Source: Alphaproteobacteria bacterium (GTDB lineage Bacteria; Pseudomonadota; Alphaproteobacteria; Micropepsales; Micropepsaceae). Taken from it: a stretch of DNA of 64,000 nucleotides. Below, one piece after another: positions 57,141-60,542 of this stretch. Each line of letters begins with the position of its first letter. Positions within the stretch are counted from its first letter, which is position 1. The translations under genes and the position numbers were made by a program. The stretch spans positions 155,345 through 219,344 of the forward strand of contig JANXXU010000006.1 in assembly GCA_025350465.1 (NCBI GenBank), read 5' to 3'. The notes under the pieces are model-generated. The model was not told the origin of the DNA, made no database searches, and saw only the letters and a list, made by a program, of their open reading frames with translations.

Positions 57141-57271
57141 CCCACGGCGAAGGTGGCTGCGGTTGCGATACTTGGCGTCGGTCGGAGGTTCGAGTCCTCC
57201 CGCTTCGAAAGGGGCGTAGCTCAGCGGCACGAGTAGGCCAAGCAGCCTCGATCACACCCCTTCGCCGTGGG
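57141..57271 (+). ncRNA. Y RNA 1 (divergent member, permuted tRNA-like)
   Basis: A 131-base unit closed by a perfect 13-bp stem CCCACGGCGAAGG/CCTTCGCCGTGGG (57141-57153 with 57259-57271). Inside are GGCTG/CAGCC and CTTGG/CCAAG pairings, a T-arm GGAGG-TTCGAGT-CCTCC (57184-57200), an acceptor-like hairpin CGCTTC-GAAA-GGGGCG (57201-57216) closed by a GNRA tetraloop, and a D-arm TAGCTCAGCGGCACGAGT. Order is T-arm, acceptor, D-arm, the reverse of a normal tRNA. It lacks the TGGTGAA/GTTCC internal loop shared by units 2-4. Confidence 0.78.
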
Positions 57272-57278
57272 TGACTGA

Positions 57279-57423
57279 AAGCTGGTGGTGAAGAGATCTG
57301 TTACTTCGCTAACCTATGGGTCGCGGGTTCGATCCCCGCCGGACAGCGTTACCGTCCGTAGCTCAGCGGTAGAGCAATAGGAGCCTCGCAAGGGGCAGTA
57401 CAGTCTCGCCTGTTCCCCAGCTT
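57279..57423 (+). ncRNA. Y RNA 2 (YrlA-like, permuted tRNA mimic)
   Basis: A 145-base unit. Outer stem AAGCTGG/CCAGCTT (7 bp), a conserved asymmetric loop TGGTGAA opposite GCCTGTTCC, and an inner stem GAGA-(T)-CTGT-(T)-AC paired with GTACAGTCTC. The enclosed tRNA-like part is T-arm GCGGG-TTCGATC-CCCGC (57323-57339), acceptor hairpin CGGACAG-CGTTA-CCGTCCG (one C-A mismatch), D-arm GCTCAGCGGTAGAGC, and a GCCTC-GCAA-GGGGC hairpin. By analogy with bacterial YrlA it should bind the TROVE protein encoded downstream. Confidence 0.85.
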
Positions 57424-57503
57424 GCCCGCCGAAGCTTTAGCGGAGGCGGGCGATTTATTCTGTTCCAGATTTCGGTCTGCGCGCGAGTGCGGGCTGTTCG
57501 AAA
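57424..57503 (+). other. Spacer between Y RNA 2 and 3 with GC palindrome
   Basis: 80 bases holding a GCCCGCC ... GGCGGGC 7-bp hairpin with the core CGAAGCTTTAGCGGAGG. A related sequence follows Y RNA 4 (CGTAGCCTTTTGGCGAAGG). These look like copies of one small palindromic element or of a 3' trailer. Confidence 0.55.
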
Positions 57504-57643
57504 GCCGGTGGTGAAGAGGTCTGTTACTTCGTTCAGCCGAAGGTCGTGAGGTTCAACTCCTCGCCGGAGGGCGCAAGCCTTCCGTAGCTCAGCGCAGAGC
57601 GGCGGCGCCCGCAAGGGCAGTACAGCCTCGCCCGTTCCCCGGC
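57504..57643 (+). ncRNA. Y RNA 3 (YrlA-like, permuted tRNA mimic)
   Basis: A 140-base unit with outer stem GCCGG/CCGGC, loop TGGTGAA opposite GCCCGTTCC, inner stem GAGG-(T)-CTGT-(T)-AC with GTACAGCCTC, T-arm TGAGG-TTCAACT-CCTCG (57547-57563), an 8-bp acceptor hairpin CGGAGGGC-GCAA-GCCTTCCG with a GNRA loop, a D-arm GCTCAGCGCAGAGC with a short loop, and GCCC-GCAA-GGGC. Relative to unit 2 the stem bases change on both strands together. Confidence 0.85.
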
Positions 57644-57658
57644 GAATACATCGCGGCG

Positions 57659-57802
57659 GCGGTGGTGAAGATGTCTGTTACTTCGTTGAAACCGAGCGGG
57701 TCGCGGGTTCGAATCCCGTCGGGTGCGCCATTGTGCACCCGTAGCTCAGTGGTAGAGCAGCAGGGGCGATGAGCCCCAATAACAGCATCGCCCGTTCCCC
57801 GC
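57659..57802 (+). ncRNA. Y RNA 4 (YrlA-like, permuted tRNA mimic with GCCA loop)
   Basis: A 144-base unit with outer stem GCGG/CCGC, loop TGGTGAA opposite GCCCGTTCC, inner stem GATG-(T)-CTGTTA paired with TAACAGCATC, T-arm GCGGG-TTCGAAT-CCCGT (57703-57719), a 7-bp acceptor hairpin CGGGTGC/GCACCCG, D-arm GCTCAGTGGTAGAGC and a GGGGC-GATGA-GCCCC hairpin. The acceptor loop reads GCCATTGT, so a discriminator base plus CCA follows the 3' acceptor strand as in a mature tRNA. It ends about 70 bases before the TROVE start codon. Confidence 0.86.
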
Positions 57803-57874
57803 TTGCTGCGCCGTAGCCTTTTGGCGAAGGCGGGCCGTCCGCGTATCTTTCACACTAAATCGAGGGAGGGCCTT

Positions 57875-59203
57875 ATGGCCAAGCTGAACATCTTCAAGCG
57901 CCGCAAGGCCAAGACCCACGAGGGCGCGCCCGCGCGCGAATTCGGACCGGAGCAATTGCTGCGCCGTTCGATCATGAACTGCATGCTGTGGGAGGACGAA
58001 TTCTATGAAGACGGCGTCACCATCGCCGATCGCATTCAAGCGCTCGTACCGAAGGTCGCGCCGGAGACCGTGGCGCAGATCGCGATCGACGCGCGTGAAA
58101 AATCGAAACTGCGCCATGCACCGCTTCTGCTCGTGCGCGCGATGGCCGCGTCCGAGAAGCACCGCCCGTTGGTAGCCTCGACGCTTGAGCGCGTCATCCA
58201 GCGTCCCGACGAGATGACCGAGTTTCTTGCGATCTATTGGTCGGACGTTATCGGCCCGCTGCAGCAGCGCAAAAAGCGCCCTGTGCCGGCGCAGGTAAAG
58301 AAAGGTCTCGCCAAGGCCTTCGCCAAGTTCGACGCCTATCAGCTGGCGAAGTATGACCGCGACGGGCCCGTGAGCTTGCGCGACGTGCTCTTCCTCACGC
58401 ACGCAAAGCCTGCGAACGCCGAGCAGGAGAAGATCTGGAAGCAGCTCGTCGACGGCACATTGGCCTCGCCCGACACCTGGGAGGTGTCACTCTCGTCGGG
58501 CGCCGACAAGAAGGAAACGTTCGAGCGTCTGATCGCCGAGAAGAAGCTCGGAAGCCTCGCGCTTCTGCGCAACCTGCGCGGCATGCTCACGGCCGGCGTC
58601 GCCAAGCGCACCATCGCCGGCGCGCTCGACGACATGCGCACCGACCGCGTGCTGCCGTACCGCTACATCGCGGCGGCCCGCTACGCGCCTGATTTTGAGC
58701 CCGAACTCGAAAAGGCGATGCTTCGCTCGCTTGAGGGCCATCCGAAGATCGAGGGCGCGACGCGCATCCTGGTCGACATTTCAGCCTCGATGGACGCGGC
58801 GATGTCGGCGCGCTCTGAGATGTTGCGTGTCGATGCAGCCTGCGGCCTTGCGGTTCTCGCGCGCGAGATCTGCGACGACGTGGAGATCTTCACCTTCTCC
58901 AACGAGGTGAAGAAAGTACCGCCGCGTCGGGGCTTCGCGCTGCGCGACGCCATCGTGCAGAGCCAGCCGCATATGAACACCTACCTCGGCAAGGCGGTTC
59001 AGGAGATCGATCAAAAGGACGTGCGCCTCATCGTCTTCACCGACGAGCAGTCGCACGACGCCGTGCCGGCGCCGAAAGGCGAGGGCTACATGATCAACGT
59101 CGCCTCGAACCGCAACGGCGTAGGCATCGGCGACTGGACCCGCGTCGACGGCTTCTCCGAAAGCGTGATCGACTGGATCATCGCCGGTGAGAAGGAAGAG
59201 TAG
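57875..59203 (+). CDS. rsr: TROVE-domain RNA-binding protein (Ro60/Rsr orthologue)
   Basis: A 442-residue ring-type protein related to the animal Ro60 autoantigen, which binds Y RNAs and misfolded RNA ends and, with polynucleotide phosphorylase, directs RNA decay. The HEAT-like TROVE ring covers ~20-270 (LLRRSIMNCMLWEDEFYEDG, then YRYIAAARYAPDFEPELE). A C-terminal von Willebrand A-like domain has the MIDAS motif LVDISASMDAAMS near residue 297 and FTDEQSHD. It is somewhat shorter than Ro60. The start ATG has GAGGGAGGG seven bases upstream. It follows four Y RNA units and precedes rtcB. Confidence 0.93.
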   Translation: MAKLNIFKRRKAKTHEGAPAREFGPEQLLRRSIMNCMLWEDEFYEDGVTIADRIQALVPKVAPETVAQIAIDAREKSKLRHAPLLLVRAMAASEKHRPLVASTLERVIQRPDEMTEFLAIYWSDVIGPLQQRKKRPVPAQVKKGLAKAFAKFDAYQLAKYDRDGPVSLRDVLFLTHAKPANAEQEKIWKQLVDGTLASPDTWEVSLSSGADKKETFERLIAEKKLGSLALLRNLRGMLTAGVAKRTIAGALDDMRTDRVLPYRYIAAARYAPDFEPELEKAMLRSLEGHPKIEGATRILVDISASMDAAMSARSEMLRVDAACGLAVLAREICDDVEIFTFSNEVKKVPPRRGFALRDAIVQSQPHMNTYLGKAVQEIDQKDVRLIVFTDEQSHDAVPAPKGEGYMINVASNRNGVGIGDWTRVDGFSESVIDWIIAGEKEE

Positions 59204-59354: not shown

Positions 59355-60542
59355 ATGTACGAAGTCATCCAATCCAAAGGCAAGCCGATCAAGGCGTGGA
59401 TCGCCGGCGTTCCGCTCGAAGATGCGGCGCGCCAGCAGCTGATCAACGTCGCCGCTTTGCCGTTCATTTTCTCGCACGTCGCCGTCATGCCCGACGTGCA
59501 CTTCGGCCGCGGCGCAACGGTCGGCTCCGTCATCCCGACCAAGGGCGCGATCGTGCCGGCCGCGGTCGGCGTCGACATCGGCTGCGGTATGGCGGCGGTG
59601 CGCACGAACTTGCGTGCGGTCGATTTGCCGGACTCGCTGAAGGACATCCGCCGCGACATTGAGAAGGCGGTGCCCGTCGGCCAGGGATCGCACAAGGAAG
59701 TGCCGCGCGAAGCGGAACGTGTGTGGTATTCGCACCTGAAGCGCCGCTACGAAGATATCGAGGCCAAGCACAAGGCGATCGCCACGCAGAAATCGTCGGC
59801 GCTTCAGATCGGCACGCTCGGCGGCGGCAACCACTTCATCGAGATCTGCCTGGATGAGGAAGATCGCGTGTGGGTGATGCTGCATTCGGGCTCGCGCAAC
59901 ATCGGCAACCGCATCGGGACGTACTTCATCGCGCAGGCGAAAGAAGAGATCGAGCGCATGGGAGTCACCTTACCCGACCGCGATCTCGCCTGGTTGGTCG
60001 AAGGCTCGGACCTCTTCGACGACTATGTCGAAGCAGTCGGCTGGGCCCAGGACTACGCGAAGGCGAACCGCGTCGCGATGATGGAAGCGGTGCTCGGCGT
60101 GTTGCGCGAACATTTCCCGCAACTCGTCGCCGGCGACGTCGCCGTCAACTGCCACCACAACTATGTCGAGCGCGAAGAGCATTTCGGCGAGAAGGTGTGG
60201 TTGACGCGCAAGGGCGCGGTGCGTGCGGGCGCGGGCGACCTTGGCATCATCCCGGGCTCGATGGGCGCGAAGTCCTTCATCGTGCGAGGATTGGGGAACG
60301 AGGACTCGTTCCACACCTGCTCGCACGGCGCGGGTCGCAAGATGTCGCGCACCGCCGCGAAGGAACGCTTCACGCTCGAGGATCACGCGAAGGCGACCGA
60401 AGGCGTCGAATGCCGTAAGGACGGCGGCGTCCTCGACGAAACGCCGATGGCCTACAAAGACATCGACGCCGTCATGGCCGCGCAATCCGACCTCGTCCAA
60501 ATCGTCCACACGCTGAAGCAGGTCGTGTGCGTGAAAGGATGA
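59355..60542 (+). CDS. rtcB: RNA-splicing ligase RtcB
   Basis: A 395-residue GTP- and Mn-dependent 3'-phosphate RNA ligase that reseals broken tRNA or rRNA. Metal and catalytic residues are in DIGCGM (Cys ~77), GTLGGGNHFIE, LHSGSRNIG, and the guanylated His near residue 324 in SHGAGRKMSR. No rtcA cyclase, archease or rtcR regulator is present nearby. The ATG at 59355 matches the usual N-terminus. Together with Rsr and the Y RNAs it forms an RNA quality-control and repair locus. Confidence 0.95.
   Translation: MYEVIQSKGKPIKAWIAGVPLEDAARQQLINVAALPFIFSHVAVMPDVHFGRGATVGSVIPTKGAIVPAAVGVDIGCGMAAVRTNLRAVDLPDSLKDIRRDIEKAVPVGQGSHKEVPREAERVWYSHLKRRYEDIEAKHKAIATQKSSALQIGTLGGGNHFIEICLDEEDRVWVMLHSGSRNIGNRIGTYFIAQAKEEIERMGVTLPDRDLAWLVEGSDLFDDYVEAVGWAQDYAKANRVAMMEAVLGVLREHFPQLVAGDVAVNCHHNYVEREEHFGEKVWLTRKGAVRAGAGDLGIIPGSMGAKSFIVRGLGNEDSFHTCSHGAGRKMSRTAAKERFTLEDHAKATEGVECRKDGGVLDETPMAYKDIDAVMAAQSDLVQIVHTLKQVVCVKG

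What the first reader, a model, noticed from the sequence alone, without database searches (positions are those of the whole stretch)
57141..57802. Four tandem Y RNAs with permuted tRNA mimics directly upstream of a TROVE-RtcB operon
Each unit shows T-arm, loop-closed acceptor hairpin, D-arm, enclosed by a stem from its own ends. Bacterial YrlA RNAs are known as tRNA mimics near Rsr genes, but four copies in a row upstream of rsr, with one divergent member, is more than the usual one or two. Different units could tether Rsr to different partners.
Basis: partly seen in the sequence, partly recalled or inferred. Interest (0 to 1): 0.93.

Follow-up and report, generated by a model that had tools for sequence, protein, structure and literature searches.

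The report
Tandem Y RNAs with permuted-tRNA heads
Just upstream of a bacterial Ro60-type gene and an RNA-ligase gene lie four tandem units predicted to fold into small RNAs with rewired-tRNA heads, and in a search of 96 related genomes strong matches to such units turned up only in genomes that hold the Ro60-type gene or, in one case, a remnant of it; they likely serve as exchangeable adaptors that would connect the Ro60-type protein to tRNA-handling enzymes.

Summary
Window 57141-57808 carries four tandem units upstream of a TROVE gene (57875-59203) and rtcB. A covariance model trained without the window or its genus scores them at 124, 108, 95 and 35 bits; the next hit in 64 kb scores 9.8. 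Their stems covary across relatives. Units 2-4 share a near-invariant base, GGUGGUGAAG...CUGUUACUUCG / GUUCCCC; unit 1 lacks it.

Four in a row is ordinary here: 32 of 43 Bradyrhizobium-type loci score four. In the order, hits of 40 bits or more are in 18 of 96 genomes: all 17 with TROVE, plus one with a TROVE remnant. None of the four units reaches the Rfam YrlA cut-off.

Less ordinary: the arrays mix heads. Some are tRNAs permuted at the anticodon loop (u4 closely copies the genome's own tRNA-Arg(ACG)); in relatives some are permuted in the D loop, and others lack a tRNA part.

Best reading: trans-acting Y RNAs predicted to tether Rsr to tRNA-elbow-binding partners such as PNPase. Transcription, Rsr binding and partners are untested. 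The primary Y RNA papers could not be read.

The parts
57141..57271 (+). Unit 1: divergent tRNA-mimic RNA with a 13-bp perfect closing stem (CCCACGGCGAAGG/CCTTCGCCGTGGG). It lacks the GGTGGTGAAG/GTTCCCC base of the other units.
   Evidence: R1 34.6 bits E 1.7e-9; found in 4 genomes of the genus, window included, with 3 compensatory pairs in the closing stem
57184..57233 (+). Unit 1 head: T arm 57184-57200, acceptor hairpin 57201-57216, D arm 57217-57233
57281..57422 (+). Unit 2: Y-RNA-type RNA, head permuted at the anticodon-loop position, plus a 3' GNRA-capped hairpin
   Evidence: R1 124.4 bits E 2.1e-37; fold
57284..57308 (+). Unit 2 base, 5' strand GGTGGTGAAGAGATCTGTTACTTCG: predicted Rsr-binding element (GAGA-u-CUGU pairs with ACAGUCUC)
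   Evidence: near-invariant across the 26 units of A2, which were chosen by this motif
57323..57375 (+). Unit 2 head: T arm 57323-57339, acceptor hairpin 57340-57358, D arm 57359-57375; anticodon-stem-like CCTAT/ATAGG
57412..57418 (+). Unit 2 base, 3' strand GTTCCCC
57503..57643 (+). Unit 3: Y-RNA-type RNA, same base; head T arm 57547-57563, acceptor hairpin 57564-57584, D arm 57585-57600
   Evidence: R1 95.3 bits E 2.4e-28; fold
57652..57808 (+). Unit 4: Y-RNA-type RNA, same base; head closely matches the genome's own tRNA-Arg(ACG), with NCCA kept in the acceptor loop
   Evidence: R1 108.1 bits E 2.6e-32; tRNA comparison
57703..57758 (+). Unit 4 head: T arm 57703-57719, acceptor hairpin with GCCA in its loop 57720-57741, D arm 57742-57758
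57875..59203 (+). TROVE protein, an Rsr/Ro60-type ring protein by predicted fold
   Evidence: PF05731 E 1.7e-20; AlphaFold model pLDDT 80.8, pTM 0.59, matches D. radiodurans Rsr 2nvo at Foldseek E 1.9e-13
59355..60542 (+). RtcB RNA ligase family protein
   Evidence: PF01139 E 6.6e-130

Best explanation
The four units are predicted genes for small trans-acting RNAs of the Y RNA kind, three of which share a conserved base predicted to bind the neighbouring Rsr (TROVE) ring, while each carries a permuted-tRNA head that would likely dock a tRNA-handling partner such as PNPase, so that the array would work as a set of exchangeable adaptors for one ring protein.

Shown here: the four units and their predicted folds, covariation of the stems, co-occurrence with TROVE, the shared base of u2-u4, the tRNA-like heads with different acceptor sequences, and the Ro60/Rsr fold prediction.

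Inferred: that they are transcribed and cut apart; that the base binds Rsr (from its conservation and from the co-occurrence); that the heads recruit PNPase or tRNA-modifying enzymes (from reports on YrlA and the Deinococcus Y RNA); that different heads mean different partners (the weakest step). Unit 1 lacks the base, so it is predicted to act without this way of holding Rsr, for example as a free competitor or bound by another protein.
For: Model built without the genus finds all four units. Compensatory changes in base, T arm and acceptor.

In the order, hits of 40 bits or more are in 18 of 96 genomes: all 17 with TROVE plus G106, which keeps a four-unit array, rtcB and only a 43-residue C-terminal match to TROVE. 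In an overlapping set of 61 genomes such hits fall in exactly the 12 TROVE-bearing ones.

In two genomes of the genus, L044 and L048, an ammonium-transporter gene separates the distal unit from rsr, so those units cannot be only an rsr leader.

The predicted fold matches Rsr and Ro60, and the genome encodes PNPase. A BLASTN of u2 against 72,556 plasmid records finds only two Methylosinus records; in the one opened, the hit lies between a Ro60-like gene and rtcB.

Literature passages: Rsr and YrlA bind PNPase in Salmonella (PMC9879122); the YrlA head is modified by DusA and TruB and its basal stem tethers Rsr (PMC8394870).
Against: No expression data; no promoter-like site found (of little weight). 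The base differs from the Rfam YrlA base: the Rfam hits on u2 and u4 align only model positions 23-85, that is, the head. PNPase binding is reported only for other Y RNAs. Nothing shows that the heads have different partners; they could be redundant. In a rough sort, 74 of 290 hits had no T arm, so a tRNA head is not universal in these arrays. Single-sequence folding of u2 is not significant (z -1.2). At the laxer limit of E 0.001, 36 of 61 genomes have some R1 match, so 24 genomes without TROVE have weak ones, at most 37.7 bits; I did not check what these are.
Confidence: 0.72

Rival explanations
1. Redundant dosage copies: all units tether Rsr to the same partner, and the variety of heads is drift after duplication.
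For: The T loop and D arm, the parts that would contact partners in a tRNA elbow, are among the best conserved parts of the heads, while acceptor sequences vary freely.
Against: Many Bradyrhizobium loci keep the last two unit types in the same order at similar distances from rsr. Arrays mix two permutation types and non-tRNA heads, which is more than drift of one design.
Confidence: 0.4
2. Cis-acting leader: the units sit in the 5' leader of the rsr mRNA, and Rsr binding to them regulates its own operon.
For: The last unit ends 66 bases before the rsr start codon in the window, and the array is on the same strand.
Against: In same-genus relatives L044 and L048 an ammonium-transporter gene lies between the distal unit and rsr. 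In Methylosinus the array lies after the Ro60-like gene, before rtcB. Genome G106 keeps the array after losing most of rsr.
Confidence: 0.15
3. Permuted tRNA genes: precursors whose ends are joined by the neighbouring RtcB and which mature into working tRNAs, as in the red alga Cyanidioschyzon.
For: The junction sites, D loop and anticodon loop, are two of the four types described for algal permuted tRNA genes (PMC3978253 passages). NCCA stands at the start of the acceptor loop in 12 of 49 distinct 7-base acceptor hairpins against 0.84 in shuffles. An RtcB gene is next door. ARAGORN reads tRNA genes across some related units.
Against: The outer stem is a conserved base rather than a known splice motif. 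The anticodon-stem pairing of u4 is poor (by reading). Most arms of the D-loop class have short loops such as tetraloops in place of an anticodon loop (by reading). The genome has ordinary tRNA genes, tRNA-Arg(ACG) included.
Confidence: 0.04
4. Decoys: the heads compete with real tRNAs for anticodon nucleases or tRNA-processing enzymes during stress while RtcB repairs cut tRNAs.
For: Suggested for YrlA in the discussion of PMC7790460 (passages). The heads resemble real tRNAs, u4 closely tRNA-Arg(ACG). They lack a normal anticodon loop, so an anticodon nuclease could bind without cutting.
Against: It does not explain the conserved Rsr-type base or the co-occurrence with TROVE. A downstream rtcB on the same strand was found in 37 of 83 loci only, though some contigs end early.
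Confidence: 0.12

Closest known systems
YrlA (Rfam RF02553), the bacterial Y RNA of Salmonella and others
   Same: tRNA-like head with T, acceptor and D arms permuted at the anticodon-loop position; encoded beside rsr and rtcB
   Different: Base sequence differs (GGUGGUGAAG/GUUCCCC against CGAAUGC/ACUUGUCG in the Rfam consensus); extra 3' hairpin; below the Rfam cut-off; several different units per array instead of the yrlB-yrlA pair
D. radiodurans Y RNA with Rsr and PNPase (RYPER), seen in passages of PMC4726728 and PMC7790460 only
   Same: Neighbouring ring protein of the same fold family; proposed tether role
   Different: No direct binding data here; in this window three units with the base stand next to one ring gene
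Circularly permuted tRNA genes of Cyanidioschyzon merolae (types I and II; PMC3978253 passages)
   Same: Junctions in the D loop or in the anticodon loop; 3' half before 5' half
   Different: Here the new ends run into a conserved base stem, and no mature tRNA is expected
rtcR-rsr-Y RNA-rtcBA operon of Methylosinus trichosporium plasmid pOB3b_01 (L213)
   Same: Four Y-RNA-like units between the Ro60-like gene and rtcB, including an anticodon-loop and a D-loop permuted head
   Different: Uses the YrlA-type base CGAAUGC; has rtcR and rtcA, whereas RtcR was not found in the window's genome

Membership tests
YrlA (Rfam RF02553) | Reaches the family's gathering score of 69 bits | tested here: not met
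   u4 39.9, u2 34.6, u1 31.1 bits, u3 not listed; no YrlA match at the cut-off in 11 related loci or L213
YrlA (Rfam RF02553) | tRNA-like module of T, acceptor and D arms | tested here: met
YrlA (Rfam RF02553) | Base stem with the consensus's conserved CGAAUGC / ACUUGUCG element | tested here: not met
   Hits on u2 and u4 cover model positions 23-85 only; u1 aligns over the whole model at 31.1 bits but without the AUGC element; base of u2-u4 reads GGUGGUGAAG/GUUCCCC
Bacterial Y RNA (functional class) | Bound by an Rsr/Ro60 protein | not testable with these tools
   Needs a pull-down or gel shift
Bacterial Y RNA (functional class) | Genomic association with rsr | tested here: met
   17 of 17 TROVE genomes of the order, plus one with a TROVE remnant; 0 of the other 78 at 40 bits or more; the search scored 30 candidates per genome
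Bacterial Y RNA (functional class) | Stem formed by 5' and 3' ends plus a separate head | tested here: met
Rsr/Ro60 (TROVE) protein family | TROVE domain and ring-plus-vWA fold | tested here: met
   PF05731 E 1.7e-20; Foldseek to 2nvo E 1.9e-13 and 1yvp E 2.6e-12, TM about 0.6 on a predicted model; NCBIfam has no match
RtcR-controlled RNA repair operon | RtcR regulator in the genome | tested here: not met
   No PF06956 match in the genome (98% complete); the E. coli control rings
Permuted tRNA genes | 7-nt anticodon loop recoverable after joining the halves | tested here: inconclusive
   Judged by reading folds: short loops in the D-loop class, poor anticodon stem in u4; but ARAGORN calls tRNA genes across four related units
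Known anti-phage defence systems (PADLOC) | Model match of TROVE or RtcB | tested here: not met
   No match for either protein

The most novel reading that the evidence does not exclude
The arrays are modular adaptor kits. One Rsr ring is served by several RNAs that pair a common grip with different tRNA-shaped heads, made by circular permutation of real tRNAs at either the anticodon loop or the D loop, so that a single RNA-surveillance ring can be aimed at different tRNA-handling enzymes; the heads were captured from cellular tRNA genes (tRNA-Arg in this window, a Leu-like one in a relative), and the same head designs appear on two different grips.
Probability: 0.3. Interest if true: 0.85.

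Novelty: new variant of a known kind. Interest (0 to 1): 0.62.

Why it matters
How a Ro60-type ring chooses its RNA and enzyme partners is an old open question, and, to my knowledge, most bacterial work rests on organisms with one or two Y RNAs. Arrays with three to six different units on a shared base, in bacteria that grow in culture such as Bradyrhizobium, and a four-unit array in Methylosinus, would let that question be tested by deleting or swapping single heads. The arrays also offer natural examples of tRNA folds opened at two different sites. Practically, the annotation tools I ran miss or misname such units: Rfam YrlA reached its cut-off in none of the loci tested, and ARAGORN calls some of them tRNA genes.

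Tried and rejected
Reading the units as tRNA genes or tRNA pseudogenes: rejected, because ARAGORN lists none in the window at this place and the halves are in reversed order inside a conserved outer stem.

Isotype assignment: I compared the 5' and 3' parts of 15 heads with tRNAs, ten with 42 tRNAs of the window's genome only, five with those and 28 of Bradyrhizobium BTAi1. Only u4 stood out by score (Arg-ACG, 41; the best that any tRNA of the genome reaches against another isotype is 40). One head of L035 scores an ordinary 31 but its top four matches are all Leu and it has a long variable arm. The rest are ambiguous, so I do not claim an isotype for u1, u2 or u3.

Automatic sorting of 290 hits into head classes was too crude to give class counts: it misfiled several units of known structure. 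I cite single examples and the 20-unit alignment instead.

RNAalifold on the D-loop class proposed a different pairing in the gapped part. I tested my own structure by counting (94.0% paired against 86.5% in shuffles, 14 of 31 pairs with two-sided changes), but its D-stem helix has no compensatory pairs, so that helix rests on 94.9% pairing only.

Unit 1 covariation rests on four sequences. Two of the five measures (pairs with two-sided changes, further pair types) do not beat shuffles (69 and 216 of 500); the other three are reached by 2 of 500.

Unit counts per locus depend on contig ends, overlap rules and cut-off: at 40 bits, Bradyrhizobium-type loci with four units fall from 32 to 22 of 43. 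L047 shows a fifth unit (G003, 76.2 bits) that the table does not list.

Viral contigs: no exact match to the base motif. Two B. japonicum small-RNA papers, passages only: PMC5082802 holds no 'tRNA', 'TROVE' or 'RtcB' in its main text; PMC4842269 holds no 'tRNA' (TROVE and RtcB not searched there).

Literature: 10 searches. Four main primary papers or reviews on bacterial Y RNAs are not held (one search tried another id), so earlier reports of such arrays cannot be ruled out.

Full report
What is there. Between a histidine-kinase gene (ending 56609) and a TROVE gene (57875-59203) the window holds four tandem units on the + strand: u1 57141-57271, u2 57281-57422, u3 57503-57643 and u4 57652-57808. 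In each, a T arm is followed by an acceptor hairpin whose two strands are joined by a short loop, then by a D arm. This is the order of a tRNA opened at the anticodon loop with its old ends joined. An rtcB gene follows TROVE (59355-60542).

Independent test. I aligned 26 units from other genera, folded the alignment (25 pairs, 14 with compensatory changes) and built a covariance model, R1, that contains no sequence of the window or its genus. On the window it gives 124.4, 108.1, 95.3 and 34.6 bits for u2, u4, u3 and u1; the next hit is 9.8 bits. A count on the alignment gives 98.0% paired cells (82.8% in shuffles) and 96 cells with two-sided changes (27.6 in shuffles), with 0 of 500 shuffles as high. 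The 26 units had been chosen with a motif first seen in the window, so the motif itself is not independent evidence.

Anatomy of u2-u4. The base is GGUGGUGAAG-N4-CUGUUACUUCG on the 5' side (counting the bulged U) and ACAG-N-N-UC-...-GUUCCCC on the 3' side. In u2, u3 and u4 the pairs GAGA/UCUC, GAGG/CCUC and GAUG/CAUC change on both sides, next to a bulged U (sequence). After the D arm comes a further hairpin: GNRA-capped in u2 and u3, GAUGA loop in u4.

Unit 1 is different. It is found in four genomes of the genus, the window included, with an unchanged T arm and a D arm CGUAGCUCAGCGGCACGAG, and with a closing stem whose sequence changes while the pairing stays (97.5% of cells; three pairs with two-sided changes). 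It lacks the GGUGGUGAAG/GUUCCCC base. With only four sequences, two of five covariation measures are not above shuffles.

tRNA identity. The 5' part of the u4 head is identical to the genome's tRNA-Arg(ACG) over 25 aligned bases, apart from two bases missing in the D loop. The 3' part matches at 28 of 33 and includes the GCCA end, which in u4 lies in the acceptor loop. A head in the same-genus locus L035 (the same contig as L047) has a long variable arm, and its top four tRNA matches are all Leu, though at an ordinary score. Other heads are ambiguous. Among 49 distinct 7-base acceptor hairpins (at least 6 pairs) from the scanned alphaproteobacterial loci, 12 loops begin with NCCA; shuffled loops give 0.84 on average, at most 6.

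How usual are arrays? Searching 85 sources gave 325 matches at E 0.01 or better. I tallied those of 34.6 bits or more, the level of u1, in 84 loci: 288. Of 43 Bradyrhizobium-type loci, 32 have four units, 9 three, 1 two and 1 one. Of 24 other alphaproteobacterial loci, 3 have six, 2 five, 7 four, 6 three, 4 two and 2 one. Of 6 same-genus loci the counts are 6, 4, 3, 3, 2, 2. Of 10 Acidobacteriota loci they are 5, 4, 3, four with 2, two with 1 and one with 0; the last has 74 bases upstream of TROVE. Several loci are cut by contig ends, and matches anywhere in the locus are counted. Four in a row is therefore ordinary here.

Co-occurrence. In the whole order (96 genomes held) TROVE is found in 17. 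R1 hits of 40 bits or more are in 18: those 17 and G106. G106 holds four units (39-134 bits), an rtcB gene and only a 43-residue C-terminal match to TROVE. In that search, with a limit of E 1e-7, weaker hits (35-37 bits) occur in two TROVE-less genomes and, in the window's own genome, at tandem tRNA genes. The search scores only 30 candidates per genome, so weak units may be missed. In a 61-genome sample, which overlaps the order, hits of 40 bits or more were in exactly the 12 TROVE genomes; at the laxer limit of E 0.001, 24 TROVE-less genomes also had matches, none above 37.7 bits, which I did not examine.

Not only a leader. In same-genus loci L044 and L048 an ammonium-transporter gene (PF00909) lies between the distal unit and the proximal unit plus rsr. 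In Methylosinus the array lies after the Ro60-like gene and before rtcB.

Other heads in related arrays. Reading and folding single units shows at least four designs on the same base: the anticodon-loop permutation; a D-loop permutation, in which GGUAGAGC (or similar) opens the head and UAGCUCAG closes it, around an anticodon-like arm with a short loop, the T arm and the acceptor; about 190-base units with only a T arm; and short units with no tRNA part. Twenty D-loop units were aligned. My structure gives 94.0% paired cells against 86.5% in shuffles and 14 of 31 pairs with two-sided changes, 0 of 500 shuffles; the D stem itself varies too little to covary. Both permutations stand side by side in Acidobacteriota locus L116. 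The window itself has no D-loop unit.

A classical operon with the same design. BLASTN of u2 against 72,556 plasmid records found two Methylosinus trichosporium OB3b records only. In the one opened, the hit lies in rtcR - Ro60-like gene (PF25045, PF05731) - gap - rtcB - rtcA. The gap holds four units, which I delimited by eye and folded: a short one, an anticodon-loop head, one without a recognised tRNA head, and a D-loop head. Their base carries CGAAUGC, the element of the Rfam YrlA consensus, not the base of the window. R1 finds only one of the four (68.5 bits), and Rfam none at its cut-off. Thus similar heads occur on two different bases.

Protein side. The TROVE protein matches PF05731. 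Its AlphaFold model (pLDDT 80.8, pTM 0.59, 18 sequences) matches TROVE and Ro60 structures first: 9kop, the Thermus phage Ro60 9l5y, then D. radiodurans Rsr 2nvo at E 1.9e-13 and Ro60-RNA complexes. The genome encodes PNPase but no RtcR was found. A downstream rtcB on the same strand was found in 37 of 83 loci; its relatives come in two kinds, 64-76% and 32-34% identical to the window's.

Mechanism. Published work, seen as passages, says that Rsr and YrlA bind PNPase (PMC9879122), that the YrlA head is modified by DusA and TruB and that the basal stem holds Rsr (PMC8394870). By analogy the base of u2-u4 is predicted to hold the TROVE ring, and the heads would dock partners that recognise a tRNA elbow. 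I think it most likely that the array supplies several adaptors for one ring; whether they have different partners is open. All steps after the predicted RNA structures are inference.

Novelty. The class (Y RNAs beside rsr and rtcB, tRNA-like heads) is known. The base variant, the multi-design arrays, the D-loop permutation and the close copy of tRNA-Arg(ACG) are not in the passages I could read. The primary Y RNA papers were not available, so I claim a new variant, not a new kind.

Noticed in passing
L111:5520-5665; L116:5831-5978; L039:6393-6542; L213:3783-3906: Y-RNA-like units whose tRNA head is opened in the D loop and keeps an anticodon-like arm; a second permutation type beside the anticodon-loop type.
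   Followed up: partly
L213:3355-3906 (Methylosinus trichosporium plasmid pOB3b_01): Four Y-RNA-like units, with no listed feature in the collection's gene table, between the Ro60-like gene and rtcB in an rtcR-rsr-rtcBA operon.
   Followed up: partly
L210:10675-11620 (genome G106): A four-unit array and rtcB remain although only a 43-residue C-terminal piece of TROVE is left.
   Followed up: partly
L063:5521-5598; L114:3638-3706; L116:5830-5915; L210:11014-11103: ARAGORN names parts of these units as tRNA-Phe, Asn, Arg and Asn genes, a likely source of false tRNA annotations; Rfam also calls those of L114 and L116 tRNA.
   Followed up: no
L045:5878-5951: A real-looking tRNA-Gln(TTG) gene lies between the last Y-RNA unit and rsr.
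   Followed up: no
G000:C39:64982-65140: Rfam YrlA and model R1 weakly hit the junction of two tandem ordinary tRNA genes, which suggests how a permuted head could arise from neighbouring tRNA genes.
   Followed up: no
window 57420-57455 and 57805-57835: Palindromic CCGCCGAAGC...GGCGG-like elements between units 2 and 3 and after unit 4, perhaps processing or terminator-like repeats.
   Followed up: no
L120:371-2219; L114:2793-3921; L117:4343-5544: Acidobacteriota TROVE loci also hold several units, some over 1 kb from rsr, many with low scores.
   Followed up: no
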